A stretch of 64,000 nt of DNA, from assembly GCA_947650285.1 (NCBI GenBank), contig CANTFL010001461.1, positions 1 to 64,000 on the forward strand, in the 5' to 3' direction. A program made the position numbers and the translations under genes. The notes under the pieces were generated by a model. The model was not told the origin of the DNA. It did no database searches and worked only from the letters and a program-made list of their open reading frames with translations. Of this stretch, positions 1 through 64,000 are shown one piece after another. The stretch's first letter is position 1. Each line of letters starts with the position of its first letter. The DNA comes from Hyaloperonospora brassicae. Taxonomy: Eukaryota; Oomycota; Peronosporomycetes; Peronosporales; Peronosporaceae.

Positions 1-414
1 ACCAAGACGTTCAACGTCTCGGTTACTCCCTGGGAACTTGCTTCCACAGGTTGCTGAGGGCCGGATCCCTCAGCAAGTGACTCTTGAGGAATTCCTTCCT
101 CAAGTACACTCTCCAGTCGACCTAGGATTTCCATGTTGCCCTTTGAAGGCAACAGGTTTCTTACTTCTAAGATGCTGCCCGCTAGGCATGCATCCATGTC
201 CCGGTCCACTCGACTTATTCGAGTGGTGGACCTTCGGCGCAGCCTGTACTCCTGTACAGCCGCCGGGAGCTTGCTCCACAGTGTAGTGATCAACTACACT
301 GTGATCTTGTGCAGTTGTGCTAACGACCGTACCGCAAGTGAGGCCATCGCACTTACTCGCAGAACATCCACACGTTTGTGGACGCTCCAAGATGTTCATT
401 AGATGGCCATCTGA

Positions 415-836
415 TTAACAAGCGGCAGGCATCTTCACGGGTCGATGCTGCCAGCTCACCCTTGGCTCGTACTTTCTGAGGCAAGGTAATCCCAGGATGA
501 CATCAAATTTGTCATCCAGATCCGTTACGATGAAGTCATCATCCTCCTTTTCATCTGTTAACGTGTAGTGAATTCCTACTACACGTTTCTCAACGGTAAT
601 CGATGCGCCTGTTGCAAGGCGCACCGTCATCCTTGTGAGGGGAAGTCGCGCTCAACGAACTTGAGCCTACTACCCTCTAGTGACTGGCGTCGAACAAAGT
701 TGTTCGACGCCCCACAGTCTACTAGGGCACGAAGCGACAAATCATTTGTCGCTTCCAACTTCAAGGTGATGAGCGAAACGTCATCACCAGGTGCAGAGAC
801 ACACAATGATTGTGTATCTGGAGCAACCTTCGTCAA
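415..836 (-). pseudogene. Retropepsin-like protease region of copy A, frameshifted
   Basis: Two adjoining minus-strand reading frames together give the aspartic protease of the polyprotein. The first (836-627) holds the active-site motif ALVDCGASNNF. The second (630-415) holds the distal part with DVILGLPCLRKYEP, typical of Gypsy proteases in which a hydrophobic-ILG motif precedes the C-terminal strand. The frames meet at about 628, where a small indel breaks the ORF. The catalytic Asp is retained. The next stop is near 415, before RT, so no functional polyprotein could be made from this copy. Confidence 0.8.
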
Positions 837-886
837 GAGATTTGTAAATTCTCGTGAGGTTGCTGGATCAGTAGGGCGCTCCGCCC

Positions 887-2035
887 CTACTGACCCCGAC
901 CATTTTTTGATGGTCCGTCTCGCTGTTGCGGCTTCGCAACAGCGCTGGACCCACGCCCATTGCCCTTTCTGGTAAAAGGTCGTCCATTTCGCTCAGTACT
1001 GTTTGGTACTGGGCGTGGAGCACTACACTCGTATGCGTAGTGCCCTAACTTCTGACAGCGATTGCACCTCTGCAATCGATTGTTGTTTGAAGAGCGAGGT
1101 CTCTCGCTCTCAACATAGCAGAGGTCCATTGGTTCTGGACCTCCGATCTCTTGTCGTCTTTGTGGACGATAAGAGTTTGAGCTAGCATGAGCCTGTCTCA
1201 TGCTAAAGTCTTCCTGTTCCGCGGCTGATATCGTATCTTCCAGCGTATTCAGCTCAAGGCGGAACAGGTGGCTCCTGACGGGCCCTTCTACGAGCCCTTG
1301 CATGAACACCGTAATCAACGTGTGTTCATGGACTGGGTTAGCAGTTATACTACTCGCGAGGAGTCGTATATGTTGTGCGTAAGCGTGCACATCACGCTTA
1401 CCCTGCTTGAGTTTCAGGAGCTCTGAACGAGCCCTGAACTCAGCCCGTGGCGGCTCAAACGTTTGTCTGAGCCGGGACTTGAAGTCATCTAGCGACCTAA
1501 ACACATTTGGGTCGCTACTCTCGAGCCCCAGGGACCAAGTTTTGGCACGCCCTGACAAGTGGGTCTTAGCAAATGTGAGTTTCATTTGCTCACCTTCGAC
1601 GCGACGAACCCTTAAGGCTCTGTCGAGTTCGACAAACCATAGTAACAGGGAGTCCTCCGGGACTCCACTGTACTAGGAGATGTCAACTTTCATGACTTCG
1701 GGACGACGCGCATGTGCCGTCCCGCCCACAGCAGCATGGAATTGCTGCTGTCTCAGCAGCTCTGTCTGTTGAGCACCGAGTTCTCTCAACTGCTCGGCCT
1801 GTTGAGAGCCTTGCTGGTGAAGCAAGGCTACTTTCTCCCTTTCGGCGACAAGTTCATGTTGAATGAACTTGGCGATAGCGGCATGTTGTTAGTATCTATC
1901 TAGAGACTCCAACATGGCGCTAATGGAGAACTCGCCTACGGTAGAACTCATTCGTTCTACCGCACCCCATTCAATGTCACTTAAATGGGTAAACCCTTCA
2001 CGCGTGGCGTGAAAGGTCTCTTTATCATCCAACAT
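887..2035 (-). pseudogene. gag (capsid plus CCHC zinc knuckle) of copy A
   Basis: The minus-strand frame starts with an ATG at 2035, equivalent to the gag start in copy C. It carries at least two in-frame stops between 1600 and 1910, and is then open for 232 residues (1585-887). The open part has the capsid-like segment with FKSRLRQTFEPP and LLKLKQGKRDVHAYAQ, then the knuckle CNRCQKLGHYAYEC (CX2CX4HX4C) and a basic tail. Copy C has a stop just before the knuckle where this copy reads through, so together they show the knuckle belongs to Gag. Function in active relatives would be particle assembly and RNA packaging. Confidence 0.85.
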
Positions 2036-2085
2036 GAAAATGTTGGATGTTGTGGTCCTTGGAAGGACTACAAAGTGCTACCAGG

Positions 2086-2475
2086 TGTAACGGGGCAAAC
2101 CCTTGCGTGAACTTAACGCAAGGGTATCGGTGCCCCGACAGACGTACACAAGGCAAGCGAGGAAGCGTAGATAAGGTAAAAGTAAAACTGATATATTAAT
2201 ATAATTAAGTCTTTAATCCACTGTCTCTCTGTTTGACTTAACTTGATTATACTAATCAAACTGAGTGTATGGTGACGTCTCGTCACCACTCATTGCGCGC
2301 GTCTTGCGGCGATTGGTGGGTTGATATCATCAAGATATCAACCAATGAACAGACTCTTTGGTCGACCCTTCAATATCACCACTTTGGTGATATTGTTCAA
2401 AGAATATTCAACTTAATATTCTTATTGTCACTTTCTTTAAAGTGACAATTCCATGTAACGGGCTGCCCCGTTTCA
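2086..2475 (-). repeat. 5' LTR of copy A
   Basis: A 390 bp LTR, here seen in reverse. Its left edge TGTAACGGGGC abuts the putative primer-binding site (CTACCA, 2078-2083), and its right edge ...GCCCCGTTTCA is a mutated form of the family end GTTACA. It aligns along its length with the LTRs at 53979-54416, 55535-55925 and 63127-63519. It contains the hairpin ATTGTCACTTT / AAAGTGACAAT and the pair CAATATCAC / GTGATATTG. The flank from 2476 onward is host sequence. Confidence 0.9.
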
Positions 2476-48000: not shown

Positions 48001-50013
48001 AACATGATCCTTACGTGGTATGTTCTTACGAAGCATGCAGGGATGATGCCGGAACAAGCAAAGAAGATGCTAAATCAGGACGCCAACCAGATTAAAATCT
48101 AGTACGAGCTGAGCTTTTAGGCTCTGCATTCATGCATTTGTGGAGGCGAAGTTGGTAGACGGAAGCGATGACAAGCAGGATGATCTACATAATACATGTA
48201 ATTCTTCAAACTTTCTGCGTTCCATTTTGAATGTTAGGATACATGACGAGTACGCCTGATCGCCTCCAAGATGGAGATTATCATAGTGTCGGGCGAGGCA
48301 AGAGGATATTTGTAATTCCATGCACAAGAAAAATAGTTCAATCAAGCTAAATTGAAGGGAAGGAATAACAACGAAAATACCACAATACTTCTTGATTCAA
48401 GAACTGAGATCTCGATCGTGGATACTGCGTTTTCTGGTAAGGAAGGATGTGTCATCGACGAGAATCAAAACCAAGCGTATGTGGGGAAAGGTAAAAACAC
48501 GTACATGACCGAAGGACTTACCAAGATCAAGTGTACCCTACTTGGATCACTGGTGTACTTTTTTGATGTGCGGTTGGGTGATCAAGTCGGGCAAGAAGCT
48601 TCTGGATATGGATTTCATGGTTCCTGCAGGTATACGTCTGGATTTAGCTGATGGGACGCTGGTATTGCCGGATGAAGTCAGAATTTACCAAACATGACGC
48701 AGACCTCTGTACGGATCGTCCATGCAGCCGAGCTTTATCCCAGAACAACATGTAGCTCTACCGGTCGGTAGATTGACCGAGATATGGAACGGCAATATCC
48801 AGTTTAACGCCAAGCTGTGGTTTAGGCCGCGATCCAACGCGGGTAACTATCGTAATCACCGGGATAGATCGGATCAAGTTATTGCATCTGACAAATCTCA
48901 GCGATAAAGTAGTTACCCTCGATCGCGGACCGGTTTAATGTTTGATTATGGCTGCCGACATGGTGTCTCGATACCCAGGCTGCATCTGGGTGGAATTACG
49001 ACGGTACAACGAGTAGCAAGTTCTAGCATTTGAAGCAAAGACAGAAAAAGAGGAAGAACCGCCACCCGAATACGCTTGTCCGCTTGTGAATCACCCACCT
49101 TTTTCTACATCGAAGAAGATTTTAAGTAAATCGAAAGAGATTAATGGAACAACTTACAGGCCGATACGAGATAAGGAAGTTGTTCTACGTCTGGAGCTAC
49201 TACCACGTGTGGTTAACACGATCGAGGAGAAGGCGGAGGCGATCGATACCCGATGGTCCAATGGAAAGAGCTAAAACGAACAATGACAGGAATACCGATC
49301 GATCGCACGATCGATTGCGACACGTTATCGATGACCTACAAAAATATCTACGATTAACGAGCGGACTGCGTGTTGTAATTACGATTTAAGAACAAACGAC
49401 GAACGGCGGAGCAGGCATTAAGTTTGAGAAAAAGGCCGAATATTTACCAGATGTAAAGATCGATGAAGGGCCATGGTCGAATGATGATCGAATTCCGGGA
49501 ACTTTAAATATCTCTGCCTATTGTAATGAAAGTGGGTAATCGTAAGCCGAAGATGTGTATCAGCACATGGCGGTATTACCTGACACTGTTACGCCTACTG
49601 CCGAAGTTACGATTGACGATATTCAGGTAGGTGATTCAGACTTACCGTTGACTTATGACCAAGAACGATTGAGACAACTTATCTGGATGAACAAGCACCT
49701 TTTTAATCGTAAAGGGATTGCACTCCGTCCAGCTACACGGGGGGGCGATATGCGAATTAGACGTGGAAGGAGTGATCCCTAACGCACAGAGAGTACGGCT
49801 AGTAGTGCCTGAGTTCCGAGAAAAGCTAGCGGACTTGTTTAAAGGACTGTTATCAGCAAAGATTATTTGACCTTCCACATCACCATGGGCTTCGCCGATC
49901 GTCCTTGTAATCAAGAAGAATGGCGAGGGCATTCGATTGTGTATCGACTATCTACTATCAACGAGTTTTTTTCAGCTAATTAGGCTAATGGTGAATCCAA
50001 TGCTGTAGATCCA
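48001..50013 (+). pseudogene. gag tail, protease, linker and RT start of the outer + strand Gypsy element
   Basis: It continues the gag interrupted at 32908 with NMILTWYVLTKHAGMMPEQA and a stop at about 48100. Protease: TTILLDSRTEISIVDTAFSG (about 48370-48430), with Asp-Ser-Arg where Asp-Ser-Gly is expected. Linker: WVELRRYNE and QVLAFEA near 49000, then AEVTIDDIQVGDSD (about 49600-49640). RT start: PNAQRVRLVVPEFREKLADL, then SPWASPIVLVIKKNGEGIRL (about 49884-49943). The RT is cut off near 50013 by the junction with copy B. Many stops and shifts are present. Confidence 0.75.
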
Positions 50014-52757
50014 TCAAACGGAGGAGATTCGTATCTCCTGTGTACGACTTTTCCGCACGTCGTCGAGTAAAGGCGACGACGGCACGCTGACTGTCAGTGT
50101 CGCAACAGTGGGATTATCCTCACTGTTGAATTGTGCGTCCGGCTCGAAATCGGGCCGGCGTGACAGCGCATCAGCGACGACGTTGAGTCTTCCTGGTTTA
50201 TACTCCACGGAGAAGTTATACTCCGCGAAGAAAGACAGCCACCTCGCCATTCTTTGCGAGAGGTGTGGGCTGTTTACGGCCGTGCGTAATGACGCATGGT
50301 CCGTATAGACAATGAACGGTCTATCTCCAAAGAGATAGACGCGTAAATTAGCCAGTGCATACTTCATGGCAAGTAGTTCATTGTCATGCACTGAGTAATT
50401 GCGTTCGGCTGGTTGCAGCTGCCGCGATTGATAGCAGACGACGCGCTCCGCGCCATCTGTGTCGAACTGGATCAGTGTATACCCGATTGCAAAATCACTG
50501 GCGTCACAGAACACATGTAATGGTCTGTCCTGATCTGCAATCGCCAAGATGGGGATTGCATCACGCTTTGCTTAGTACCTTCAAAGGAACGCTGGCACAC
50601 AGCGTTCCATGACCACTTGACATTTTTCTTGAGTAAGCAAGAAAGATGAACAGTCATCTCGGCGTAGTTACGCGAGTACTTGTGCAAGTACGCCGCTAGC
50701 CCAAGGAACTTCCTTATTCCCTTGACATCAATTGGCACTGGCCAGTCGGTGATTGCCTTGATCATTTCGGGATCAGGGTGTACGCCGTGTTTACCCGCGA
50801 TGCACCCAAGAAGTGGTATTTCGCTAGCCGCGAATATACACTTCTTGAGTTTGGCGTAAAACTCATGGTTGCGCATGAGTTAAAAAAACCCGTCGAGCAT
50901 GAGTTCTATGAATCTCAACTTATGTCTTCCCGTCCATAGCCCGGCTATGGACGAACACATCGACAAAAAAACTCGGTGCGAAATCTCGCACCGGTCTCAA
51001 CAGATTTGTGACAAATCTGTTGAATGTTGCAGGGGCATTACTCAGCCCCTGTGTCATCACTAGCCACTCCTACAGCATTCCGCTGGGGGTACTCACTGCC
51101 GTAAACGGGATGTCCCGTTCACGCATGAGGATATGATAGAACTCATCCATCAGATCCATGGACGAAAAGATGGTACTCTTTGACATGCCATCTATGATAA
51201 TGTCCTTCCTCGGTATCGGCGTCTGAGCCGGTACCGTTGCAGCATTCAATTTGTTGAATGCGTGCACTATCCGCCATCCTCCTGTGGCCTTTCGCACACA
51301 GAAGGTCGGAGAGCTGTGAAGAGAAGTTAATGCCCTCACATGGCCCGCTGCTAAGCGATCGGCAAAGAACTTGTCGATCGCTAGTACTTGTTCACGAGGC
51401 AGTGACCACTGCTTCATGACACAGTACTTCAAGCCCGGTTTAAGCTCGATCTCGTGTCGAGTGCCTTTGTCCTTAGGCAACTCGCAAGGTACGGATTCAG
51501 GGAATACGTCCTTGAATTCGATCAAATCCTTATACAAAGGATTTGCCTGTAGTGACTCCCAGGATTGATACATGTGTCGCTCAATCCGAGTCTTCTCATT
51601 GAGGACACTTTCGTCCATCGGTGAGCTGCTGAGAACCCGTTCGTTCTCAGCAAATACTGTGGCCGACCGAATTTCGGCCACATACTCATCCTCTGTGACG
51701 AGTATGCAGATCTGCTTGACTTTGCCACTACGCGGATCACGCAAGAACCGTTTCGGTTCTAGCGTTGGCAACTGAGTTATCTCCGAAGTTAACTTCGGAG
51801 GCACAATCAGATCAAGCGTATGAGCGCCTACGCTTGATCCGTCATTACCCAAGACGTTCAACGGCTCGGTTACTCCCTGGGAACTTCTTTTCACAGGTTG
51901 CTGAAGGCCTAATCCTTCAGCAAGTGACTCTTGAGGAATTCCTCTCTCAAGTACGTACGGGACTTATTCCCTCGACGTCTTCTGACTGTGGCTGTGCAAC
52001 CACAGTCAGGTACCGATTCTCTACGGTCGACTTTCCAGTCGACCTAGGATATCCGTGTTGCCGCTTGTGGGCAACCGGTTTACTCTTGCTAGGATGTCGC
52101 CCGCTAGGCGTGCATCCACGCCCCGGTCCACTCGACTTATTCGAGTTGCGGACCTTCGGCGCGGCCTGTACTTCTGTACAGCCGCCGGGAGCTTGCTCCA
52201 CAGTGTAGTGATTAACTACACTGTGATCTTGTGCGGTCGAGCGAACGACCAAACCACAATTGAGGCCATCGCACTCACTCGCAGAACATCCACACGCTTG
52301 TGGACGCTCCAAGATGCTCATCAGATGGCCATCTGATGAACAAGCGGCAGGCATCTTCACGGATAGATGCTGCCAGCTCACTCTTGGCTCGTATATCTGA
52401 GCTAAGGTAGTACTAGGATGACATCAGACTTGTCATCCAGATCCATTACGATGAAGTCATCACCTCCTTTTCATCTGTTAACGTGTAGTGTATTTCGACT
52501 ACACGTTTCTTAGCGGTAATCGATGCGCCTGTTGCAAGGCGCACCGTCATCCTCGTGAGGGGAATGTCGCGCTCAACGAACTTGAGCCTACTACCCTCTA
52601 GTGACTGGGGACGAAAAAAGTTGTTCGACGACCCACAGTCAACTAGGGCGGATAGTGACAAATCATTTGTCACTTCCAATTTCAAGGTGATGAGGGACAC
52701 TTCATCACCAGGTGCATAGACACACAGTGACTGTGTGTCGGAAGCAACCTTCGTCAA
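50014..52757 (-). pseudogene. pol (protease, RT, RNase H) of copy B
   Basis: Protease motif ALVDCGSSNNF (about 52660). A 144-codon linker frame (52381-51947) follows, then a 274-codon frame (51894-51070) with the RT N-terminal half: YCVMKQWSLPREQVLAIDKF, SPTFCVRKATGGWRIVHAFN, FSSMDLMDEFYHI. It ends at a TAG replacing a Trp codon. The catalytic region reads FFVDVFVHS, so the second Asp of the DD pair is Val. RNase H (50547-50014) keeps FCDASDFAIG, NELLAMKYAL and YTDHASLRTA. The same stop and the same Asp-to-Val change occur in copy C. Confidence 0.85.
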
Positions 52758-52849
52758 GAGATTTGCAAATTCTGTTGATGTTGCTGGATCAGTAGGGTGC
52801 TCCGCCTTTGCTGACCCCGACCATTTTTTAATGGTCCGCTCTCTCTGTT

Positions 52850-53870
52850 GCGGCTTTGCAACAAAATCGGACCCTCGCCATCCAGTTCTTTTAACTGATA
52901 GAAGGTTACTGCGCTCATCACCATGGAGTTCTGATCGGAAATACTTTATTCGTATGCATAGTGTCCCAGCTTATGAAAGCGATGGCATCTCACCATTTGC
53001 TTTTCCTTCTCAGGGCGAGGTTTCTCGCACTCAACATGACAGAGGGCCAATTGGTTCTGGACCTCCGACCGCTGATCGTCTTTATGGACGATAGTATGTA
53101 AGAGTAGTGTGAGCCTGTCTCACACGAAAGTCTTCCTTCTCCGCAGCGTAGATCGCTTCGAAGAGAGTCTTTAGCTTCCCGCGAAACAGGTGGTTCCTGA
53201 CAGGACCATCTGCAAGACCTTGAATAAATATTTTGATCTTCACAAATTCACTTACAGGGCACACTAACATTCAACTTGCAAGGTAGCGTACATGCTGAGC
53301 GTAAGCGTGAAACTTACGCTTGCCCTGTTTTATCTCAAGGAGTTCAAAGAGAGTCTTAAAATTTGCCTTGGGAGGCTCAGAAGTCTCACTGAGAAAGGTA
53401 TTGAAGACGTACAACGACTCGAACACGTTCGGGTCGTGTAACTTGAGATGTAGGTCCAAATTCCTGGCGTCCCCTGCCAAGTAAGACTGAGCGAATGCAA
53501 CTTGCATTCGCTCTTTGTCTATGCGACGGGCCTCGATGGGCCCGTCGACCTCGACGATCCATCTAATCAGGGAGTCTTCCTCGACTCCCCGATACTTGGA
53601 ATCTCTAACTTTAGAGACTCCTGTCGACGCTCAACCGTCGAACTTGCGGACTGAGACTGATTCTGTCTCAGTTCTTTCGTCCGCTGGTGATCTTGTTGTC
53701 GCAACAAGGTCACCTGCTTCGCTACTCGTCAAGTTCTCGCTGCAAGAACTTGCTAATGAAGGAATTTTGCTGATCTCTATCTCTTGTGGGCAGCATGGCC
53801 TAGATCGCTTCCTCGTTAACGGGCGAACCCATTTATTCGATCGCACTCCATTCGACATCGCTTAAATGGT
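52850..53870 (-). pseudogene. Diverged gag of copy B
   Basis: Frames 53858-53631, 53507-53271 and 53270-53082 give a capsid homologous to copies A and C but clearly diverged, for example MQVAFAQSYLAGDARNLDLH where copy C has MKLTFAQTHLAGRAKTWSLG. LLEIKQGKRKFHAYAQHVRY and EDFRVRQAHTTLTYYRP follow. The zinc knuckle region (about 52950-53000) is eroded. The drop in identity at about 52840 against near-identity further left marks a sharp boundary. Confidence 0.75.
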
Positions 53871-53978
53871 AGTAGCTTTCGCGAGTTCCGTGAAGTCTGT
53901 CGCCTTCGACTTCGTTTTATATGTTCATGTCGGGCGATGCGAGTGTGGTCATTGGACGGACTACAAAGTGCTACCAGG

Positions 53979-54416
53979 TGTAACGAGGCACTAGTAACTA
54001 CGTACTGGTTGACCAGTACGGAGTACACTTCCACTGACGACAAAGATAGTCAGTGCCCTGATAAGTGTTGCACCAACACAGAGGATGGAAAGGAGACCAG
54101 TGAACACGCTAGTCTGGTAAAAGTAAAACTGTTATTTAATATAATTAAGTCCTATCAATCGTATGTCTCTGTTTATCTTGACTTAATTGTATTAATCTAA
54201 CTAAAAGTATAATGACGTCCACTCACCACCCATTGCGCGCGTCTAGCAGCGATTGGTGGGTTGATATCATCACGATATCAACCAATGAGTAGAACCTTCG
54301 GTCATCTTCAACAATATCACTAGCATGGTGCTATTGTTGAAAGAATATTCAGCGTAATATAATTTATTGTCATTTTATCCTTAGTGACAATATTATGTAA
54401 CGGGCTACCCCGTTAT
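53979..54416 (-). repeat. 5' LTR of copy B
   Basis: 438 bp from TGTAACGAGGC to ...CCCCGTTATA. It matches the other LTRs of the family in its right two thirds, but has about 50 bp of extra, different sequence at its left end (about 53990-54110), including TACTGGTTGACCAGTA, itself a palindrome. Confidence 0.82.
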
Positions 54417-54738
54417 AACTATGGACGGGGTATGAATGGCTTACACTATGGGGAAGAGGGTGTGGCGTCTCGCAAGCATTGCAGTCATTTGTCGTCGCTT
54501 CTCGTCGCAACTCACGGATCTTTTGCGTCCCTTGACCCGAAAGCATTGATACTGGCGCTGGATGTGGAGGAGGAACTCTATGCAACATACGGTCAGAGGT
54601 GCTGGTGAGCAGAGGAATTGGTGATGACTCGGCATGGGCTCGTTCAAACACTGACGCGTGTGCTATGCCCCATGTGTTGTAGAACGATCTGACGAACGCA
54701 GCCACTCGTTGACGAAAGCGTACGCGCACTAGGCACGG

Positions 54739-55307
54739 ATGCTGCTATTTACCCTGAATGATGCACGGAACGTCAACCTGTACAACCGACTCGTGTCGGA
54801 TGAGCTTCCGACGCAAATTCTGGTACGCATATGCGGCCCCGGAATGGCCAATTCGCAGTTCGTGCGTCAGCGAAAGGAGTTGATCAAGAAGCGCACGCAC
54901 GAGATAAAGCGCGACGGTCGTGACGTTGAGGGCTTAAAGGTGGACCTGTTTGAAAGCCGCAACTGCGGCAGCTCACGGACACTCTATCGCCAGTGGCGTC
55001 GCAAGGCTGTGGTAGACCGTACGCAGATCATCATTGTATGTCTGATGTACCCATGTCAATGCAAGCTGTCGCCGGCTGGTAGAGGACCAGGACCGAGCCG
55101 TTCTTCGGGAAGCAAATGCAGCGTGAGGCGCGGCTTTCAGCAGGATCCTCCATCGAAAAAGAGGAGGTAGAGCACTCCTGGGCACCGTTCGATAGGACGT
55201 ACGCACAACAAATGAGGTTCGTCGTAGCAGAGGAGGGTATCAGCCAAGACCGACCATACCTGCGCAAACAGTTGCCCGTCCTCCCCCATGTCGGGCTGGT
55301 AGGTTGA
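54739..55307 (+). CDS. Unrecognised host gene-like ORF, possibly two exons
   Basis: A GC-rich + strand frame starts MLLFTLNDARNVNLYNRLVS and runs to about 55035. There a GTATGT donor and a TAG acceptor at 55080-55082 would remove a 47 bp intron in phase 0. The second exon (55083-55307) contains SSIEKEEVEHSWAPFDRTYA and SQDRPYLRKQLPVLPHVGLV. I recognise no domain. The final ~160 bp of it are present again at 63526-63684 with the frame still open. The 47 bp intron would be short for this genome. The region may equally be a fragment of another repeat. Confidence 0.3.
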
Positions 55308-55534
55308 TCCACGAAACCTTCGAACCGACCGGCGAAAGATAGTCTTGGCCCTAGCTGTGTGAACATCCTGTGATAGAGACGGGCCTTCCATGCGGCGGAG
55401 GCGCTCGACCTAGATGGCATGAAGTCTCGTTGATACAACAAAACGCCACAGCTCTCGAGATGCCGGGAAGACCATAGCCTAAGCATTTAATAAACCTGCC
55501 CCTGTGGTCATAGATTGCTTGACAACAACCCAGG
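55146..55534 (+). repeat. ~390 bp direct repeat, left copy (flanks copy C)
   Basis: Runs from CCATCGAAAAAGAGG to AACAACCCAGG, immediately before the 5' LTR of copy C. The same sequence, with roughly a dozen or more substitutions, starts just after the 3' LTR (63526-63911) and then continues into unique sequence. Confidence 0.85.
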
Positions 55535-55925
55535 TGTAACGGGGCAGCCCGTTACATGGAAATTGCCATTAAAGAAACAATGACAATAAAGAATATTAAC
55601 TTGAACATTCTTTGTACAATATCACCAAAGTAGTGATATTGAAAGGTCGACCAAAGCGTATGTTCATTGGTTGATATCTTGATGATATCAAGCCACCAAT
55701 CGCCGCAAGATGCGCGCAATTAGTGGTGACGAGACGTCACCATACACTCAGTTATATTAGCATAATTAAGTCAGGTTAAACAGATAGACAGTAACAAAAT
55801 ACTTTATTATATTAATACAACAGTTTTACTTTTCCCTTATTTACGCTTCCTCGTTTGCCTTGTGTACGCTTGTCGGGGTACCAATATCCTTGTGTTAAGT
55901 TCACGCAAGGGTGTGCCCCGTTACA
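55535..55925 (+). repeat. 5' LTR of copy C
   Basis: 391 bp, TGTAACGGGGC...GTTACA. Both ends form inverted repeats: arms TGTAACGGG / CCCGTTACA at 55535-55556. Further hairpins include CAATATCAC-type and TTGATATC-type pairs. Confidence 0.92.
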
Positions 55926-55927
55926 CC

Positions 55928-55946
55928 TGGTAGCACTTTGTAGTCC
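55928..55946 (+). promoter_or_regulatory. Putative primer-binding site of copy C
   Basis: TGGTAGCACTTTGTAGTCC begins two bases after the LTR. The first 8 nt complement the 3' end TGCTACCA of eukaryotic initiator tRNA-Met. The match does not extend further, so the priming tRNA is uncertain. The same sequence abuts the LTRs of copies A and B. Confidence 0.5.
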
Positions 55947-55969
55947 TTACAAGGACCACAACATCCAAC

Positions 55970-57178
55970 ATGAAAATGTTGGATGATGAAGAGACCTTTC
56001 ACGCCACGTGTGAAGGGTTTAACCATTTGAGTGACATCGAATGGAGTGCGGTAGAACGAATGAGTTCTACCGTAGGCGAGTTCGCCATTAGCGCCATGTT
56101 GGAGCCTCTAGACAGAGACCAACAACATGCCGCTATAGCCAAGTTCATCCAAAGTGAACTTGTCGCCGAAAGGGAGAAAGTAGCCTTGCTTCACCATCAA
56201 GGCTCTCAACAGGCCGAGAAGTTAAGAGAACTCGGTGCTCAACAGACAGAGCTGTTGACACAGCAGCAATTCCATGCTGCTGTGGGCGGGACGGCACATG
56301 CGCGTCGTCCCAAGGTCATGAAATTCGACATCTCCAAGTACAGTGGATTCCCGAAGGGATCCCTGTTACTGTGGTTTGTCGAACTCGACAGAGCCTTAAG
56401 TGCTCGTCGCGTCGAAGATGAGCAAATGAAACTCACATTTGCTCAGACCCACTTGGCAGGGCGTGCCAAAACTTGGTCCCTGGGGCTCGAGAGTAGCGAC
56501 CCAAATGTGTTTAGGTCGCTAGATGACTTCAAGTCCCGGCTCAGACAAACGTTTGAGCCGCCACGTGCTGAGTTCAGGGCTCGTTCAGAGCTCCTGAAAC
56601 TCAAGCAGGGTAAGCGTGATGTGCACGCTTACGCACAATATATACGACTCCTCGCGAGTAGTATAACTGCTAACCCAATCCATGAATACACGTTGATTAC
56701 GGTGTTCATGCAAGGGCTCGCAGAAGGGCCCGTCAGGAGCCACCTGTTCCGCCTTTTGCTGAATACGCTTGAAGTAGCGATATCAGCCGCGGAACAGGGA
56801 GACTATAGCATGAGACAGGCTCATGCTAGCTCAAACTCTTACCGTCCACCAAGACGACAAGAGATCGGAGGTCCAGAACCAATGGACCTCTGCTATGTAA
56901 AGGGCGAGTGACCTCGCTCTTCGAACAACAAGCGATTGCACATGTGCAATCGCTGTGAGAAGTTAGGGCACTACGCATACGAGTGTAGTGCTCCACGCCC
57001 AGTACCAAACAGTAATGGGCGAAATGGACGACCATTCACCAAGAAGGGCAATGGTCGTGGGTCCAGCGCTGTTGCGAAGCCGCAACAGCGAGACAGACCA
57101 TTAAAAAATGGTCGGGGTCAGCAAAGGCGGAGCACCCTACTGATCCAGCAACATCAACAGAATTTGCAAATCTCTTGA
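55970..57178 (+). pseudogene. gag of copy C with premature stop before the zinc knuckle
   Basis: 313 open codons from the ATG at 55970: an N-terminal helical part (AEREKVALLHHQGSQQAEKL), then KFDISKYSGFPKGSLLLWFV, the capsid core FKSRLRQTFEPPRAEFRARS and ELLKLKQGKRDVHAYAQYIR. A TGA at 56909-56911 replaces the CGA (Arg) codon present in copy A. The same frame continues through the knuckle CNRCEKLGHYAYEC (CX2CX4HX4C) and a basic tail to 57178. The start was chosen as the first ATG after the leader and overlaps a hairpin. Confidence 0.85.
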
Positions 57179-57600
57179 CGAAGGTTGCTCCAGACACACA
57201 GTCACTGTGTGTCTATGCACCTGGTGATGAAGTGTCCCTCATCACCTTGAAATTGGAAGTGACAAATGATTTGTCACTATCCGCCCTAGTTGACTGTGGG
57301 TCGTCGAACAACTTTTTTCGTCCCCAGTCACTAGAGGGTAGTAGGCTCAAGTTCGTTGAGCGCGACATTCCCCCTCACGAGGATGACGGTGCGCCTTGCA
57401 ACAGGCGCATCGATTACCGCTAAGAAACGTGTAGTCGAAATACACTACACGTTAACAGATGAAAAGGAGGTGATGACTTCATCGTAATGGATCTGGATGA
57501 CAAGTCTGATGTCATCCTAGTACTACCTTAGCTCAGATATACGAGCCAAGAGTGAGCTGGCAGCATCTATCCGTGAAGATGCCTGCCGCTTGTTCATCAG
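57175..57600 (+). pseudogene. Protease region of copy C, frameshifted
   Basis: Active-site string ALVDCGSSNNFFRPQSLEGS, then a +1 C in a run of five Cs at about 57369-57373 (copy B has four) shifts the frame. The distal part resumes as ITAKKRVVEIHYTLTD and ends with VSWQHLSVKMPAAC. Copy A and copy B show the unshifted sequence. Confidence 0.8.
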
Positions 57601-58038
57601 ATGGCCATCTGATGAGCATCTTGGAGCGTCCACAAGCGTGTGGATGTTCTGCGAGTGAGTGCGATGGCCTCAATTGTGGTTTGGTCGTTCGCTCGACCGC
57701 ACAAGATCACAGTGTAGTTAATCACTACACTGTGGAGCAAGCTCCCGGCGGCTGTACAGAAGTACAGGCCGCGCCGAAGGTCCGCAACTCGAATAAGTCG
57801 AGTGGACCGGGGCGTGGATGCACGCCTAGCGGGCGACATCTTAGCAAGAGTAAACCGGTTGCCCACAAGCGGCAACACGGATATCCTAGGTCGACTGGAA
57901 AGTCGACCGTAGAGAATTGGTACCTGACTGTGGTTGCACAGCCACAGTCAGAAGACGTCGAGGGAATAAGTCCCGTACGTACTTGAGAGAGGAATTCCTC
58001 AAGAGTCACTTGCTGAAGGATTAGGCCTTCAGCAACCT

Positions 58039-59385
58039 GTGAAAAGAAGTTCCCAGGGAGTAACCGAGCCGTTGAACGTCTTGGGTAATGACGGATCAAG
58101 CGTAGGCGCTCATACGCTTGATCTGATTGTGCCTCCGAAGTTAACTTCGGAGATAACTCAGTTGCCAACGCTAGAACCGAAACGGTTCTTGCGTGATCCG
58201 CGTAGTGGCAAAGTCAAGCAGATCTGCATACTCGTCACAGAGGATGAGTATGTGGCCGAAATTCGGTCGGCCACAGTATTTGCTGAGAACGAACGGGTTC
58301 TCAGCAGCTCACCGATGGACGAAAGTGTCCTCAATGAGAAGACTCGGATTGAGCGACACATGTATCAATCCTGGGAGTCACTACAGGCAAATCCTTTGTA
58401 TAAGGATTTGATCGAATTCAAGGACGTATTCCCTGAATCCGTACCTTGCGAGTTGCCTAAGGACAAAGGCACTCGACACGAGATCGAGCTTAAACCGGGC
58501 TTGAAGTACTGTGTCATGAAGCAGTGGTCACTGCCTCGTGAACAAGTACTAGCGATCGACAAGTTCTTTGCCGATCGCTTAGCAGCGGGCCATGTGAGGG
58601 CATTAACTTCTCTTCACAGCTCTCCGACCTTCTGTGTGCGAAAGGCCACAGGAGGATGGCGGATAGTGCACGCATTCAACAAATTGAATGCTGCAACGGT
58701 ACCGGCTCAGACGCCGATACCGAGGAAGGACATTATCATAGATGGCATGTCAAAGAGTACCATCTTTTCGTCCATGGATCTGATGGATGAGTTCTATCAT
58801 ATCCTCATGCGTGAACGGGACATCCCGTTTACGGCAGTGAGTACCCCCAGCGGAATGCTGTAGGAGTGGCTAGTGATGACACAGGGGCTGAGTAATGCCC
58901 CTGCAACATTCAACAGATTTGTCACAAATCTGTTGAGACCGGTGCGAGATTTCGCACCGAGTTTTTTCGTCGATGTGTTCGTCCATAGCCGGGCTATGGA
59001 CGGGAAGACATAAGTTGAGATTCATAGAACTCATGCTCGACGGGTTTTTTTAACTCATGCGCAACCATGAGTTTTACGCCAAACTCAAGAAGTGTATATT
59101 CGCGGCTAGCGAAATACCACTTCTTGGGTGCATCGCGGGTAAACACGGCGTACACCCTGATCCCGAAATGATCAAGGCAATCACCGACTGGCCAGTGCCA
59201 ATTGATGTCAAGGGAATAAGGAAGTTCCTTGGGCTAGCGGCGTACTTGCACAAGTACTCGCGTAACTACGCCGAGATGACTGTTCATCTTTCTTGCTTAC
59301 TCAAGAAAAATGTCAAGTGGTCATGGAACGCTGTGTGCCAGCGTTCCTTTGAAGGTACTAAGCAAAGCGTGATGCAATCCCCATC
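58039..59385 (+). pseudogene. Reverse transcriptase of copy C
   Basis: 58039-58863 has the N-terminal half (LKPGLKYCVMKQWSLPRE, TFCVRKATGGWRIVHAFNKL, SMDLMDEFYHILM), ending at TAG 58861-58863 where the family has Trp. Then EWLVMTQGLSNAPATFNRFV, catalytic FFVDVFVHS (second Asp replaced by Val), stops at about 59010 and 59040, and the connection part MRNHEFYAKLKKCIFAASEI, FLGLAAYLHKYSRNYAEMTV. A further shift occurs near 59380. Every one of these lesions lies in the tract shared with copy B. Confidence 0.88.
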
Positions 59386-59947
59386 TTGGCGATTGCAGAT
59401 CAGGACAGATCATTACATGTGTTCTGTGACGCCAGTGATTTTGCAATCGGGTATACACTGATCCAGTTCGACACAGATGGCGCGGAGCGCGTCGTCTGCT
59501 ATCAATCGCGGCAGCTGCAACCAGCCGAACGCAATTACTCAGTGCATGACAATGAACTACTTGCCATGAAGTATGCACTGGCTAAGTTTACGCGTCTATC
59601 TCTTTGGAGATAGACCGTTCATTGTCTATACGGACCATGCGTCATTACGCACGGCCGTAAACAGCCCACACCTCTCGCAAAGAATGGCGAGGTGGCTGTC
59701 TTTCTTCGCGGAGTATAACTTCTCCGTGGAGTATAAACCAGGACGACTCAACGTCGTCGCTGATGCGCTGTCGCGCCGGCCCGATTTCGAGCCGGACGCA
59801 CAATTCAACAGTGAGGATAATCCCACTGTTGCGACACTGTCAGTCAGTGTTCCGTCGTCAAGCTTACTTGACGACGTACGAAAGGCATACGCGGAAGATA
59901 TGGATCTTCTACGATTGAGTGGATCATCTGGTGCATCCATCCAGTAA
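59386..59947 (+). pseudogene. RNase H of copy C
   Basis: LHVFCDASDFAIGYTLIQFD, the Glu motif NELLAMKYALA, then an extra G at about 59586 (absent in copy B) shifts the frame. It resumes as RVYLFGDRPFIVYTDHASLR and VEYKPGRLNVVADALSRRPD. The catalytic acids are all present. There is no second RNase H in this family. Confidence 0.85.
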
Positions 59948-61506
59948 ATCCATGAGGGATTTACCGGCTCTGTACCGATCCTCATCGGATCGGCATAGTA
60001 GACGCAACGGATTGCTATACTATACAGCTGTTGCCGACGACACGTCTCGTGTCGTCGTCCCCGCTCATCATGATTTGCGCTTACGCATCATGTATGAGTG
60101 TCACGATGCCCCAACAGGTGGCCATCGTGGTAGAAAAAAGACCAAACTCACGTTAAGTCGTGACTTTACTGGCCACACCAGTATCATTTTGTCCGCAAGT
60201 ACATACGTGCTTGCGAGGTTTGTCAACAGGTGAAGCCTAGTCCTTCATCTCGTGCGCCATTGCAGCCTCTGCATGTTCCGACAGAGTGCTGGCAGTCCGT
60301 TTCAATGGACTTCGTCTTCGGGTTTCCCGAAGACGCTCACGAGAATACTGGTATTCTTGTGTTTGTTGACCGGTTCAGCAAGATGGTGCATCTTGCTGCT
60401 GTCCCTGAGTCGATCAAGGCTCAAGGTTGTGCTCGTGTCTTTCTCGACACGGTCTCTAGACTCCACGGGTTACCCCGTGAACTCGCATCCGACCGTGACC
60501 CTCGGTTTACGGCGGCGTTGTGGCAATCAGTGTTCCACACATTGGGACACGATTGAAGATGTCTACTTCTGACCATCCCGAAACATATGGTCAGACGGAA
60601 CGTGCGAACCGTGTCCTCGAAGTGATCCTTTGAGGATATTTCCACTCATTCACGAGTTGGAGCGAATTCCTACCCATGGTGAAATTCGCCATCAATAATT
60701 CGGTGCATGCTTCCACACAGCACACACCGTTTTACGTGAATGACCTACGCCATCCACGTGTGCCCACCCTTCTAGAGTGTGACTCTTAAATAAGGGGGGG
60801 AGGGACTTGCTCGAGCAACAACCGTTTTGGCTCTTGCTCATCACGTGTCGACGCTAACGTCGTCACGTATGATGCCGATGTCGATCAGGTCGACATCGAT
60901 GAAGAAGATCACCTCAATAATAGCGACGACGCTATTTTTGACTCGGATGATGATGACGATGCTGGTATATTCAGCATCGTCAACGATTATGCCAGCGAGG
61001 AAGAAGACAACCTCGCTGAAGAAGATAACAATCTCTTAGCGATGCGCACGAAGCGCACTGAAAGACAAAACAACGAGTCAGAAGAGAACTTCCTGTTGAC
61101 TCGAGAGGCGGTAGTCAGTTTCGTTCAGGACTCCATCGCAAATGCGGTGGACCGTCAGAAACGGAACGCATACAAGAATGGAAGAGCAAATGTTCTTTCA
61201 TTTAAGGTTAACGACCTAGTACTACTGTCTACGGTAAACTCACCTGGACATGCAGTCACTAGTGTCGGCAGTGGTAAACTACTGCCGAAGTACATTGGGC
61301 CATTTCGAGTGTTGCATCGTAAGGGCAATGCAAACACGATCGAATTGCCACGTTGGATGCGCACGCATCTAACGTTTTACGTGGGGCGACTCAGGCCGTA
61401 CTGTCGGTACGAGCCTTCTTCTTCCGATGAAGATAGCCCCCGTTCAAGAACATCAATCAAGTTCTTGTGTTCGCGCTCCAGACGATCCGTCTGGTCGCGC
61501 AGATAA
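59948..61506 (+). pseudogene. Integrase and GPF module of copy C
   Basis: The zinc domain has CHDAPTGGHRG and, after a shift, CEVCQQVKPSPSSRAP. The core has Asp in SMDFVFGFPED and Asp in ASDRDPRFTAALW. The Glu region is in a shifted frame at about 60580-60640 with QTERANRVLEVIL. An acidic segment (about 60850-61040) precedes NAVDRQKRNAYKNGRANVLS and the GPF module PKYIGPFRVLHRKGNANTIE (about 61289-61348). The C-terminal part overlaps the end of the antisense ORF on the opposite strand. Confidence 0.82.
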
Positions 61507-63005
61507 GATACCTCAGAACTCAACCGAGATATCTCCCCGCGAGCTGTCGCCAGCTCGCCGAAAATGGAGCGGACATCCCGCTCGACCTGAATCTGCGCTG
61601 TGGCATAATCGACGCGGTCTCTCGCCCGATCAGCCTCGTGACCCTTGCAGTTCTTCCGCCCGGTATCAGTCAAAGCGTAGCGCCGGTCGCGCTCGTGCTT
61701 TAAGTCATCGCGCAATTCATCGATTGCGTGATCCATCTCGTAAGGGTCGAGATGGTGAACCGAATCATTTGGAGGAGGTCTTTACTCCTCCACCACATCC
61801 TTTGGTGGATGCTCACGGTTATCAACACTCTATAGTGGAGCGTATCTTGAATCACCGTGACGATTCAGGATCAAGGACGAGCTACCTCGTCCAGTGACGG
61901 GGGTATCCACCCTCTTGGAACAGCTGGGATCCCCGCTCTCAGCTTTTGATGGACGTTGAAGGTCTCGTCCGCCAGTATGAAGAGACCCATCCGATGAGTC
62001 CTCGGGCCCATCGGTAAACACGCGCTTTTGGCGCTTGTAGACGGATTGCAAGTTTGCAATCTCGTCACGCATCTCCTCCGAGATGTGTGCCCTTCCCCAG
62101 GGCGAACTTAGGGAATACACGTCCCTATGTGCACGCTGCGAGTTGTCAATACAACTCGCACAAGGGTCTCCCCATATGAGGCAAGGAATGTCTGCTTCAC
62201 TCGACAAACAGTGCAACCGGTACCTGGCACCGGTTGGCGTTCGCTTTTCGAACCTGAGGCGTGTCGTCTCAAGTTTCATGAGCCACCCTTCTCGTCCAAA
62301 ATTCTTTACGTTTTGGACGAACGCGTTCCACGCAGCCAAAAGCGATGTTTTGTCACGCTTTTGATTGCCGTTGTACCATCGATGCTTGAGGAAAGCATCG
62401 AGATAAAAGTCTTATTCAGCGCGAAAGTTCTTCGCGCTGGGACTCAAGCCGTGAAGCTCAGTCGCATCGAATAAGGGTATTCGATGGTGTTGGCTTGTCT
62501 AATTAGACAAGCTATTGATGAGCCGTTCGGGAAAACGACCCGGCTTCAGCTCATCACGCTTCACAGTGGTACCTTTGTTGGTACCACGGCTCCCAGATTG
62601 ACGACGGCTCACGCCATCGTCATCACGCTCGCGCGAAGACGCACGAGCAGGCGGTGGTAAGGAATAATTATCCTCACCACCCTGATCATCGTCATCACTG
62701 CCGAACGGACTGTGATGCAAATCACGAGTCCGTTCGTTCGGCAGTGGCCTTGGCGGATACTGAGGCATCGCCGGTGAGCGAGACGCCTCTGAAGCATCGC
62801 CCGAGTCAGACACGTCTGACGTGCCGGAATAGATGACCTCAACGTCAGCGTCATCATGCGCACGCGGTGAGGTGCCGCGTGCACCTGCAGCACCTGTTGC
62901 TGCAGGCGAAGAACGAGCAGCAGACGACGAATCGTCTGCCGCAGAGGCTGGAACAGCACCGGGCTGTGTAGGTCTTGAGTCACCTCGCAAAGACATGTTA
63001 ACCAT
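61377..63005 (-). pseudogene. Antisense ORF between integrase and 3' LTR, copy C
   Basis: On the minus strand a single frame runs from the ATG at 63005 to the stop at 61377 (542 codons) with only four in-frame stops (near 62500, 62409, 61831, 61768) and no frameshift. It begins MVNMSLRGDSRPTQPGAVPA, is then Ser/Ala/Asp-rich, followed by a basic SRERDDDGVSRRQSGS part and a central part with VQNVKNFGREGWLMKLETTR and CLIWGDPCASCIDNSQRAHR. The C-terminal part is predicted coiled coil: AIDELRDDLKHERDRRYAL and EISRLSSEVSYLRDQTDRLE. I recall similar 'hypothetical proteins' in Phytophthora but no function. The start lies 120 bp inside the 3' LTR. Confidence 0.75.
61750..62018 (+). pseudogene. Chromodomain of copy C pol, overlapping the antisense ORF
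   Basis: The + strand frame reads YQHSIVERILNHRDDSGS then RTSYLVQ, a TGA at 61895-61897 in place of Trp, RGYPPSWNSWDPRSQLLMDV and VRQYEETHPMS, stopping at 62016-62018. This is a chromodomain shadow of the type RYxVExILxHR...YLVRWRGYPPxxxSWEP. It is in a different frame from the GPF module, so a shift lies near 61440. The whole domain is opposite the antisense ORF. Confidence 0.8.
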
Positions 63006-63115
63006 GCGAGGTCAAGCGGAAAGTGAATGGAACGGACCCAACAAGTACTCCCTGTCCCAATGGTGACCAACGGGTGGCCACCATATTTTCGATAGTCACA
63101 CGGTGACTATCAGTT

Positions 63116-63126
63116 GAGGGGGGTGA
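63116..63126 (+). promoter_or_regulatory. Polypurine tract of copy C
   Basis: GAGGGGGGTGA immediately precedes the 3' LTR, the usual site for plus-strand priming. It follows the hairpin GATAGTCAC / GTGACTATC (63091-63111). Confidence 0.75.
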
Positions 63127-63519
63127 TGTAACGGGGCAGCCCGTTACATGGAAATTGCCATTAAAGAAACAATTACAATCAAGAATATTAACTTGAATAT
63201 TCTTTAAACAATATCACCGAAGTGGTGATATTGAAGGGTCGACCAAAGCGTATGTTCATTGGTTGATATCTTGATGATATCAAGCCACCAATCGCCGCAA
63301 GACGCGCGCAATGAGTGGTGACGAGACGTCACCATACACTCAGTTATATTAGCATAATTAAGTCAAGTTAAACAGAGAGACAGTAGCAAAAAGTACTTTA
63401 TTATATTAATACAACAGTTTTATTTTTCCCTTATTTACGCTTCCTCGTTTGCCTCGTGTACGTCTGTCGGGGCACCCAAACCCTTCCGTTAAGTTCACGC
63501 AAGGGTGTACCCCGTTACA
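63127..63519 (+). repeat. 3' LTR of copy C
   Basis: 393 bp, TGTAACGGGGC...GTTACA, collinear with 55535-55925 with about twenty or more differences by eye. Confidence 0.92.
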
Positions 63520-63911
63520 TCTGCCATCGAAAAAGAGGAGGCAGAGCACTCCTGGGCACCGTTCGATAGGACGTGCGTGCAACAAATGAGGTTCGTCGTA
63601 GCAGAGGAGGGTATCAGCCAAGACCGACCATACCTGCGCAAACAGTTGCCCGTCCTCCCCCATGTCGGGCTGGTAGGTTGATCCACGAAACCTTCGAACC
63701 GACCGGCGAAAGATAGTCTTGGCCCTAGCTGTGTGAACATCCTGTGATAGAGACGGGCCTTCCATGCGGCGGAGGCGCTCGACCTAGATGGCATGAAGTC
63801 TCGTTGATACGACAAAACGCCACAGCTCTCGAGCTTCCGGGAAGGCCACAGCCTAAGCTTTCAATAAATCTGCCCCTGTGGTCATAGATTGCTTGACAAC
63901 AACCCAGGCGT
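63520..63911 (+). repeat. ~390 bp direct repeat, right copy (flanks copy C)
   Basis: Begins directly after the 3' LTR and matches 55146-55534, with substitutions such as GGCAGAGC for GGTAGAGC and TTGATACGAC for TTGATACAAC. It then continues into unmatched host sequence (63912-64000, CGTTGGGCGG...). No gene is recognised in the remaining 90 bp. Confidence 0.85.
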
Positions 63912-64000
63912 TGGGCGGAATTCCCGGGAGGTCCAGTCCAAACACCCAGACATGCAAGTCATCCTTCTGGAAAGTACTAAGCCATCGCCACCGATCAAGG

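What the first reader, a model, noticed from the sequence alone, without database searches (positions are those of the whole stretch)
55535..63519. A retrotransposon tiled end to end with short inverted repeats, including its coding regions
Seen directly: copy C is a near-continuous run of short perfect or near-perfect palindromes and hairpins, by eye one every 30-60 bp across LTR, gag, pol and 3' region. Examples: 56931-56954 is a perfect 24 bp palindrome (half-site AGCGATTGCACA). 57595-57614 is CATCAGATGGCCATCTGATG. 57708-57734 has arms CACAGTGTAGT / ACTACACTGTG. 57924-57951 has CTGACTGTGG / CCACAGTCAG. 58094-58123 has GATCAAGCGT / ACGCTTGATC. 58133-58152 is CTCCGAAGTTAACTTCGGAG. 58911-58935 has CAACAGATTTGT / ACAAATCTGTTG. 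58940-58959 has CGGTGCGA / TCGCACCG. 58981-59001 has GTCCATAGCC / GGCTATGGAC. Also 56420-56444, 56807-56827 and 57028-57058. Copies A and B show the same. APRT, SCOT and the 15 kb inner element do not look like this. Inference: either a mutational process specific to this element (reverse transcriptase switching template within quasi-palindromes and copying one arm onto the other), or selection for genome-wide RNA structure.
Basis: partly seen in the sequence, partly recalled or inferred. Interest (0 to 1): 0.96.

Follow-up and report, generated by a model that had tools for sequence, protein, structure and literature searches.

The report
Retrotransposon tiled with selected hairpins
A jumping gene in what is likely an oomycete genome carries about a hundred short, perfectly self-matching hairpins from end to end, genes included; they are likely kept by natural selection and would help it to stay folded and escape gene silencing.

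Summary
Copy C (55535-63519) holds 98 non-overlapping perfect hairpins with arms of at least 7 bp. At loop <=12 its density is 11.4 per kb against 0.85 in window 2901-50049; dinucleotide shuffles of C average 5 hairpins in all. The excess spans LTRs, gag, pol and an antisense gene, and is mostly at loops of 12 nt or less. All 37 other fetched 5'-half family loci show it; 30 loci of other retroelements do not. Two related families (about 60% identical pol) have it, mostly at other positions; a third, equally related, has none.

Variants private to one copy fall on stems as often as chance. Variants shared by three or more copies avoid stems about twofold, in the LTR too. I read this as purifying selection on pairing. 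Sense-strand RNA structure alone fits poorly: G-U is mostly not favoured over A-C. Arm-to-arm copying fits poorly as the maintaining force: pair-creating and compensatory changes are not in excess. Two exact loop inversions show that hairpin-driven rearrangement does occur.

The likely role, untested, is to keep both strands self-folded, hindering sense-antisense duplexes and siRNA silencing. The searches made listed no report of such an element.

The parts
55535..55925 (+). 5' LTR of copy C (TG...CA), itself with 5 hairpins arm>=7 (12.7/kb)
55970..56911 (+). gag ORF, 313 aa, Retrotrans_gag; 11 hairpins arm>=7
56912..59000 (+). end of gag, protease-like stretch (by eye) and start of RT; 14.4 hairpins/kb; frame broken in this copy
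59001..60780 (+). RT/RNase H/integrase stretch, broken in this copy; 9.6 hairpins/kb
60781..61900 (+). integrase C-terminal stretch (SH3_Tf2-1 in 61042-61503), 10.7 hairpins/kb; sister copy L069 shows a chromodomain here
61830..63005 (-). antisense ORF, broken in C into 169 aa (61830-62339) and 168 aa (62499-63005); 535 aa in L069; 13.6 hairpins/kb in 61901-63005
63127..63519 (+). 3' LTR of copy C, 93% identical to the 5' LTR; 12.7 hairpins/kb
56931..56954 (.). example hairpin, 12 bp arms, loop 0
58910..58936 (.). example hairpin, 13 bp arms, loop 1, in RT
60376..60398 (.). example hairpin of the commonest outer span (23 nt), arms 10, loop 3, in integrase; in sister copy L069 the same place encodes the residues usual in homologues
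2..2475 (-). copy A, same family, minus strand, incomplete; 13.8 hairpins/kb over 1-2900
50008..54415 (-). copy B, same family, minus strand, incomplete; 9.3 hairpins/kb over 50050-55290

Best explanation
Copy C belongs to a large family of Ty3/gypsy-type retrotransposons whose LTRs, gag, pol and antisense gene all carry perfect Watson-Crick hairpins (98 with arms of 7 bp or more in 7,985 bp), and these are likely kept by purifying selection for base pairing in replicating lineages, which would keep both strands folded on themselves and is predicted to hinder sense-antisense duplexes and small-RNA silencing. Shown: the tiling, its restriction (among the loci fetched) to this family and two relatives, the preference for short loops, the avoidance of stems by shared variants, the general lack of G-U preference, and an antisense ORF with relatives in downy mildews. 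Inferred: that selection (not another force) causes the avoidance, that the folded molecule matters on both strands, and that the benefit is escape from dsRNA/siRNA silencing. How the hairpins first arose is open; synonymous codon choice plus occasional hairpin-driven template switching is the likely route.
For: Element-wide excess over dinucleotide and codon-preserving shuffles. 37 of 37 other family loci (L002-L038) 11.3-18.2 hairpins/kb; 30 of 30 loci from the best RVT_1 matches (L039-L068) 0.3-1.9/kb. Excess mostly at loops 0-12 nt, as expected of folded single-strand hairpins. Private variants on stems 221 of 652 (0.34; stem share of sites 0.331); in 2 copies 50 of 179 (0.28); 3 copies to 25% 29 of 138 (0.21); 25-50% 5 of 64 (0.08); loops not depleted (also at the other thresholds tried). 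Circular-shift null for >=3 copies 0.336 +- 0.038, observed 0.168, 0 of 10,000 shifts as low. Holds in the non-coding LTR. Between families: third codon positions in L075 stems match L071 at 0.70 (n=67) vs 0.43 outside (n=625), p=3e-5 (the only significant one of 7 such comparisons); L071 and L075 share 7 of 17 hairpin centres vs 0.9 expected. Little sign of G-U preference: first outer mismatch G-T 23, A-C 33 of 172 hairpins in L069, L071, L075, and 30 vs 26 of 139 in copy C; stem variants in >=3 copies G-T 6.9, A-C 14.1 of 38. Sense and antisense folding energies alike. Antisense ORF of 535 aa with eight relatives (one 88%, seven 36-53% identity) incl. Hyaloperonospora and Peronospora; 20.4 hairpins/kb where only antisense codes. 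Transposon-derived small RNAs of 25/26 nt are documented in Phytophthora (PMC3804510, passages).
Against: Related family L072/L080 has no hairpin excess (1.7 and 0.4/kb) and is also abundant (1,508 first-look candidates vs 2,256), so hairpins are not needed for success. Shared pair-creating variants are not in excess (16.3 vs 17.2 expected). Six of seven between-family stem comparisons are not significant. In the small L071-family sample (5 rows) no stem depletion was seen. Where three or more further pairs follow the first mismatch, G-T leads A-C (6 vs 2 in C, 5 vs 3 in L069, none in L071 and L075). Only 7-8% of 25-nt windows hold a whole hairpin, though 69-81% touch one. PMC3804510 (passages) also reports that inverted repeats are the strongest small-RNA sources per Mbp in P. 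infestans, together with tandem repeats. Copies are related, so variant counts are not fully independent. Nothing here measures transcripts, small RNAs or silencing; the antisense ORF in L071/L075 was not tested.
Confidence: 0.43

Rival explanations
1. Mutational origin: the element's reverse transcriptase folds the nascent strand back within quasi-palindromes and copies one arm onto the other, so hairpins accumulate without selection.
For: Perfect Watson-Crick pairing and strand symmetry; two exact loop inversions of 24 and 28 nt, none in reversed or complemented controls (with a laxer threshold 6 vs 2 and 0); similar density over LTR, coding and antisense regions; confined to some families; outer span peaks at 23 nt (22 of 98).
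Against: Pair-creating private mutations only slightly above expectation (63 vs 56.2, 38 vs 32.0, 24 vs 20.9); shared stem variants mostly remain mismatched (paired in about 4.6 of 38); stems are depleted of shared variants.
Confidence: 0.25
2. Selection for structure of the sense genomic RNA only (packaging, stability, translation), as in viruses with genome-scale ordered RNA structure.
For: Mean folding z of -4.3 to -5.3 in 150-nt windows of the family, against -1.6, -1.2 and -0.1 in L072, L073 and L074; stems conserved in shared variants; short loops; G-T leads A-C 11 to 5 where further pairs follow the mismatch.
Against: G-U not favoured over A-C at helix ends, inside persistent stems (2 vs 2, other 4) or among shared variants (7 vs 14); antisense folds as well as sense; LTR tiled as well as the body.
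Confidence: 0.17
3. Selection on single-stranded DNA: hairpins in the minus-strand cDNA protect it or aid plus-strand synthesis, integration or escape from nucleases.
For: Shared stem mismatches lean to A-C on the plus strand, i.e. G-T on the minus strand (14.1 vs 6.9; 33 vs 23), a weak trend.
Against: Copy C leans the other way (30 G-T vs 26 A-C), as does the count with further pairs (11 vs 5); trend weak and not formally tested.
Confidence: 0.12
4. Chance or composition artefact.
For: None.
Against: 10-20 fold over shuffles, direct and mirror repeats not raised in a comparable way, neighbours at background.
Confidence: 0.01

Closest known systems
Chromodomain Ty3/gypsy LTR retrotransposons (chromovirus-like)
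   Same: gag, RT, RNase H, integrase with H2C2, SH3_Tf2-1 and Chromo domains; LTRs TG...CA
   Different: whole element tiled with hairpins; long antisense ORF before the 3' LTR
Genome-scale ordered RNA structure (GORS) in RNA viruses (known to me; term searched, listing only)
   Same: structure across coding and non-coding regions, strong folding z-scores
   Different: discrete perfect palindromes mostly of 20-26 nt, little G-U preference, equal on both strands, in a retrotransposon
Retand plant Gypsy elements with antisense ORFs (PMC11963269, passages read)
   Same: antisense ORF between pol and 3' LTR
   Different: no TRP28 or other Pfam domain in the antisense protein here; the words hairpin and inverted repeat do not occur in that paper's main text
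Hairpin-loop small inversions of chloroplast DNA (search listing only; otherwise recalled)
   Same: exact flip of the loop between short inverted arms
   Different: there scattered and incidental (recalled); here two cases in one densely hairpinned retrotransposon family

Membership tests
Ty3/gypsy LTR retrotransposon | gag capsid domain | tested here: met
   Retrotrans_gag E=4e-15 in 55970-56908
Ty3/gypsy LTR retrotransposon | pol order RT - RNase H - integrase | tested here: met
   RVT_1 2-166, RT_RNaseH 255-360, Integrase_H2C2 478-535, rve 554-647 in L069
Ty3/gypsy LTR retrotransposon | two LTRs beginning TG and ending CA | tested here: met
   55535-55925 and 63127-63519, 93% identical
Ty3/gypsy LTR retrotransposon | aspartic protease domain | not tested
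   only a protease-like motif seen by eye near 57290; no Pfam search of that stretch
Chromovirus-type (chromodomain) | C-terminal chromodomain in integrase | tested here: met
   Chromo E=1.2e-13 in L069:2151-3380
Chromovirus-type (chromodomain) | place in the chromovirus clade of the RT tree | not tested
   no RT tree was built
Genome-scale ordered RNA structure | folding energy well below shuffles along the genome | tested here: met
   mean z -4.98 (gag, 6 windows), -5.31 (pol, 16), -4.28 (3' part, 19)
Genome-scale ordered RNA structure | sense-RNA pairing with G-U favoured over A-C | tested here: inconclusive
   not favoured in most counts: 23 vs 33 and 30 vs 26, 6.9 vs 14.1, 2 vs 2; leans to G-T in one small count, 11 vs 5
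Retand-like antisense module | antisense ORF with TRP28 domain | tested here: not met
   antisense ORF present (535 aa), no Pfam family at E <= 0.001

The most novel reading that the evidence does not exclude
The element has recoded its entire sequence, proteins included, into a two-strand hairpin armour: most siRNA-sized stretches overlap a hairpin that either strand can form (69-81% of 25-nt windows), so sense and antisense transcripts cannot easily pair and silencing complexes cannot easily bind, a sequence-wide, protein-free counter-defence against RNA silencing that is present in at least two related lineages at different positions.
Probability: 0.23. Interest if true: 0.95.

Novelty: new variant of a known kind. 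Interest (0 to 1): 0.86.

Why it matters
A retrotransposon that keeps a hairpin about every 80 nt through its protein genes and its LTRs would be a new way for a mobile element to shape its own sequence. It makes an old question, how far nucleic-acid structure alone can protect a transposon, directly testable. A related family in the same genome without hairpins serves as a natural control.

Tried and rejected
Chance, composition and low complexity: rejected by shuffles and by direct/mirror-repeat controls. Ongoing arm-to-arm correction: I favoured it after the loop inversions and dropped it as the maintaining force when private mutations did not create pairs clearly in excess and shared stem variants proved mostly uncorrected. 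Sense-RNA structure alone: weakened by most of the G-U counts. An ascertainment worry, that stems with much shared variation would no longer be called stems, was checked with lenient thresholds of 10 and 20% of copies and by circular shifts; the depletion stayed. Codon register of hairpins fits both selection and mutation and was not used. A scan of viral contigs for DNA of relatives found none. DNA of relatives in other species was not obtained; only proteins. Self-folding of 25-mers (2 shuffles each): at -4 kcal/mol L069 0.45 vs 0.29 shuffled, but hairpin-poor L072 0.43 vs 0.22; at -6 kcal/mol L069 0.27 vs 0.11, L072 0.12 vs 0.09. So it separates the families only at the stricter cut and is weak support. 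A first idea, that siRNAs would fold on themselves, is weakened because only 7-8% of 25-nt windows hold a whole hairpin. Literature: eight searches listed no paper whose title or start of abstract describes such an element; this is a statement about those listings only. In PMC5348765, on oomycete retrotransposons, the words hairpin, palindrom, antisense and inverted do not occur in the main text (passages only).

Full report
OBSERVATION. In 1-kb bins, perfect inverted repeats (arm >=7, loop <=20) run at 6-16 per kb in 1-3000 and 50001-64000 and 0-4 per kb elsewhere, where three shuffles per bin give means of 0.0-2.3. Copy C has 98 such hairpins at loop <=16 (140 with arm >=6) with 7-13 bp arms, spanning 29% (39%) of its bases. 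Codon-preserving shuffles exclude a by-product of protein sequence or codon usage in the five open stretches tested. The excess in C is 10-25 fold over a shuffle at loops of 0-12 nt and about 2-4 fold beyond 12 nt up to 40 nt; L003 and L069 also keep a smaller excess at 21-40 nt. Controls in the same call: direct repeats 2.6/kb in C against 3.1 and 4.0 in two other window stretches; mirror repeats 1.4 against 1.0 and 1.4; complement-direct 2.3 against 1.9 and 1.4. In L003 and L069 mirror (2.8, 2.2) and complement-direct repeats (4.3, 3.1) are about twofold up, far less than the inverted ones.

WHAT THE ELEMENT IS. A Ty3/gypsy-type LTR retrotransposon: Retrotrans_gag, RT, RNase H, H2C2 and rve integrase, SH3_Tf2-1 and a chromodomain, with LTRs of 391 and 393 nt that are 93% identical. 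Between pol and the 3' LTR lies an antisense ORF of 535 aa in the open copy L069, broken in copy C. It has no Pfam domain but eight relatives: one at 88% identity, seven at 36-53%, among them proteins of Hyaloperonospora arabidopsidis and Peronospora matthiolae. The closest named pol by identity is from Peronospora effusa (86% over 69%), so the host is likely a downy mildew or near relative (inference). The genome search scored 127 gag protein matches at 89-100% identity, of 4,474 candidates (a lower bound); most have gag frames open at 396 aa.

WHERE THE HAIRPINS ARE. In C: LTRs 12.7/kb, gag 11.7, gag-RT 14.4, RT-IN 9.6, integrase end 10.7, antisense part 13.6. In L069: pol 16.7, integrase end 13.2, sense/antisense overlap 15.9, antisense-only 20.4, remainder 7.9. 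Outer spans peak at 23 nt (22 of 98; 79 of 98 are 26 nt or less). Loops peak at 4-7 nt. Thirty-seven of 37 other family loci (mostly 5' half) have 11.3-18.2/kb; 30 of 30 loci brought in by the best RVT_1 matches have 0.3-1.9/kb (one of these, L064, contains 742 aligned bases of our family). Of further loci, L071/L081 (about 60% pol identity to L069) have 9.0/9.6, L075/L076 6.0/4.7, and L072/L080, equally related, 1.7/0.4. L073 has 1.3; the distant L074/L085 0.3/3.2; L086 1.6; main-family members L069, L070, L077, L078, L082-L084 12.4-16.0 and L079 6.4. Hairpin centres of L069 coincide with those of L071 and L075 little more than chance (2 vs 2.0 and 3 vs 1.5 expected), while L071 and L075 share 7 of 17 (0.9 expected). 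So the positions turned over, or the feature arose more than once.

EFFECT ON PROTEIN. Many hairpins are written with codons for the residues common in homologues (for example FSKMVHLAA with 11-bp arms); others carry substitutions. Amino-acid identity to 120 homologues is lower in stems (0.60 and 0.64 for the two arms) and loops (0.56) than outside (0.69). To three of the closer relatives stems are nearly as conserved as the rest while loops are not: P0018 0.86, 0.88 outside, 0.69 loops; P0055 0.88, 0.89, 0.78; P0061 0.81, 0.83, 0.68. But P0001 (0.75, 0.83, 0.62) and P0003 (0.73, 0.78, 0.61) show a gap. This hints that the same stems constrain relatives in Peronospora (weak inference).

TESTS OF MECHANISM. 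(a) Private versus shared variants in 41 LTR, 39 gag and 38 post-gag rows (of 48, 40 and 40 pieces tried; the rest gave no full-length piece): private variants fall on stems at the site share, shared ones progressively less (0.34, 0.28, 0.21, 0.08). Fisher OR 2.53, p=1.8e-6 for >=3 copies; circular shifts 0 of 10,000 at the 20% threshold, 1 in 10,000 at 10%. It holds in LTR, gag and post-gag separately (p 0.001, 0.008, 0.014), and at gag third positions private 33 of 99 against 9 of 55 in >=3 copies. Relatedness of copies makes the p-values optimistic. (b) Arm copying: pair-creating private mutations 63 vs 56.2 expected (arm 6), 38 vs 32.0 (arm 7), 24 vs 20.9 (arm 8), a slight excess without formal test. 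Shared pair-creating variants 16.3 vs 17.2. If arms were regularly corrected from each other, about half of the missing shared stem variants should reappear as compensated pairs (my argument); only about 4.6 of 38 variants in >=3 copies are paired. A few compensatory pairs exist within the family (e.g. LTR columns 99/104, gag 433/437) and between L071 and L075. (c) Loop inversion: two exact flips (24 nt in L020, 28 nt in L022), none in reversed or complemented controls; at a laxer threshold 6 against 2 and 0. (d) Strand: G-T versus A-C at the first outer mismatch 23 vs 33 of 172 (L069, L071, L075) and 30 vs 26 of 139 (C, same family as L069); where at least three further pairs follow, G-T leads, 6 vs 2 in C and 5 vs 3 in L069, none in L071 and L075. 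Sense minus antisense energy per 150-nt window: gag -3.2 +- 2.9, L069 pol +0.6 +- 1.8, L069 3' part +1.2 +- 1.4, L071 +1.0 +- 1.1, L075 +0.9 +- 1.2. Private stem variants G-T 88, A-C 72 of 315; two copies 15 vs 16 of 72; >=3 copies 6.9 vs 14.1 of 38. Persistent single-mismatch stems 2 vs 2, other 4. (e) Between families, L075 stems keep third positions in L071 (0.70 vs 0.43, p=3e-5); the other six comparisons are not significant; in five rows of the L071 family no stem depletion was seen.

READING. The hairpins look like physical single-strand folds (short loops) that are conserved where the element replicates and decay freely in single copies. The general lack of a G-U advantage argues that sense RNA alone is not the target, though the counts are small and one leans the other way; equal folding of both strands fits either both transcripts or single-stranded DNA. 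Because the element carries an antisense gene with relatives in other downy mildews, converging on pol, and because transposons of Phytophthora are sources of 25/26-nt small RNAs (PMC3804510, passages), I commit to the view that the tiling keeps both strands folded and so hinders long duplexes and siRNA action. That last step is untested. Against it stand the hairpin-free, abundant related family L072, the fact that only 7-8% of 25-nt windows hold a whole hairpin, and the report in the same paper that inverted repeats are strong small-RNA sources.

NOVELTY. None of eight literature searches listed an element like this. The element is an ordinary Ty3/gypsy type; the element-wide, strand-symmetric hairpin tiling under apparent selection is the new part.

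Noticed in passing
L069:2758-4362 (-); broken in window 61830-63005 (-): Antisense ORF (535 aa) without Pfam domain, overlapping the chromodomain end of pol; relatives in Hyaloperonospora and Peronospora.
   Followed up: partly
55150-55534 and 63524-63908: Copy C lies directly between two 97% identical copies of a 390-bp dispersed repeat (40 scored matches, 137 candidates in the genome); either inserted at the junction of a tandem pair or an unusual flanking duplication.
   Followed up: partly
family loci L020 and L022, post-gag stretch: Exact inversions of hairpin interiors (24 and 28 nt), each in a single copy.
   Followed up: yes
L069:2151-3383 (+): Integrase C-terminus and chromodomain lie in a frame different from the main pol frame (1-2403), overlapping its end; possible frameshift site.
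   Followed up: no
L072, L080: Related family with about 60% pol identity and a long open frame but no hairpin excess; a natural control.
   Followed up: partly
32911-33941 and 47052-47983: Direct repeats of 84-92% identity about 14 kb apart, likely the LTR pair of the inner element.
   Followed up: no
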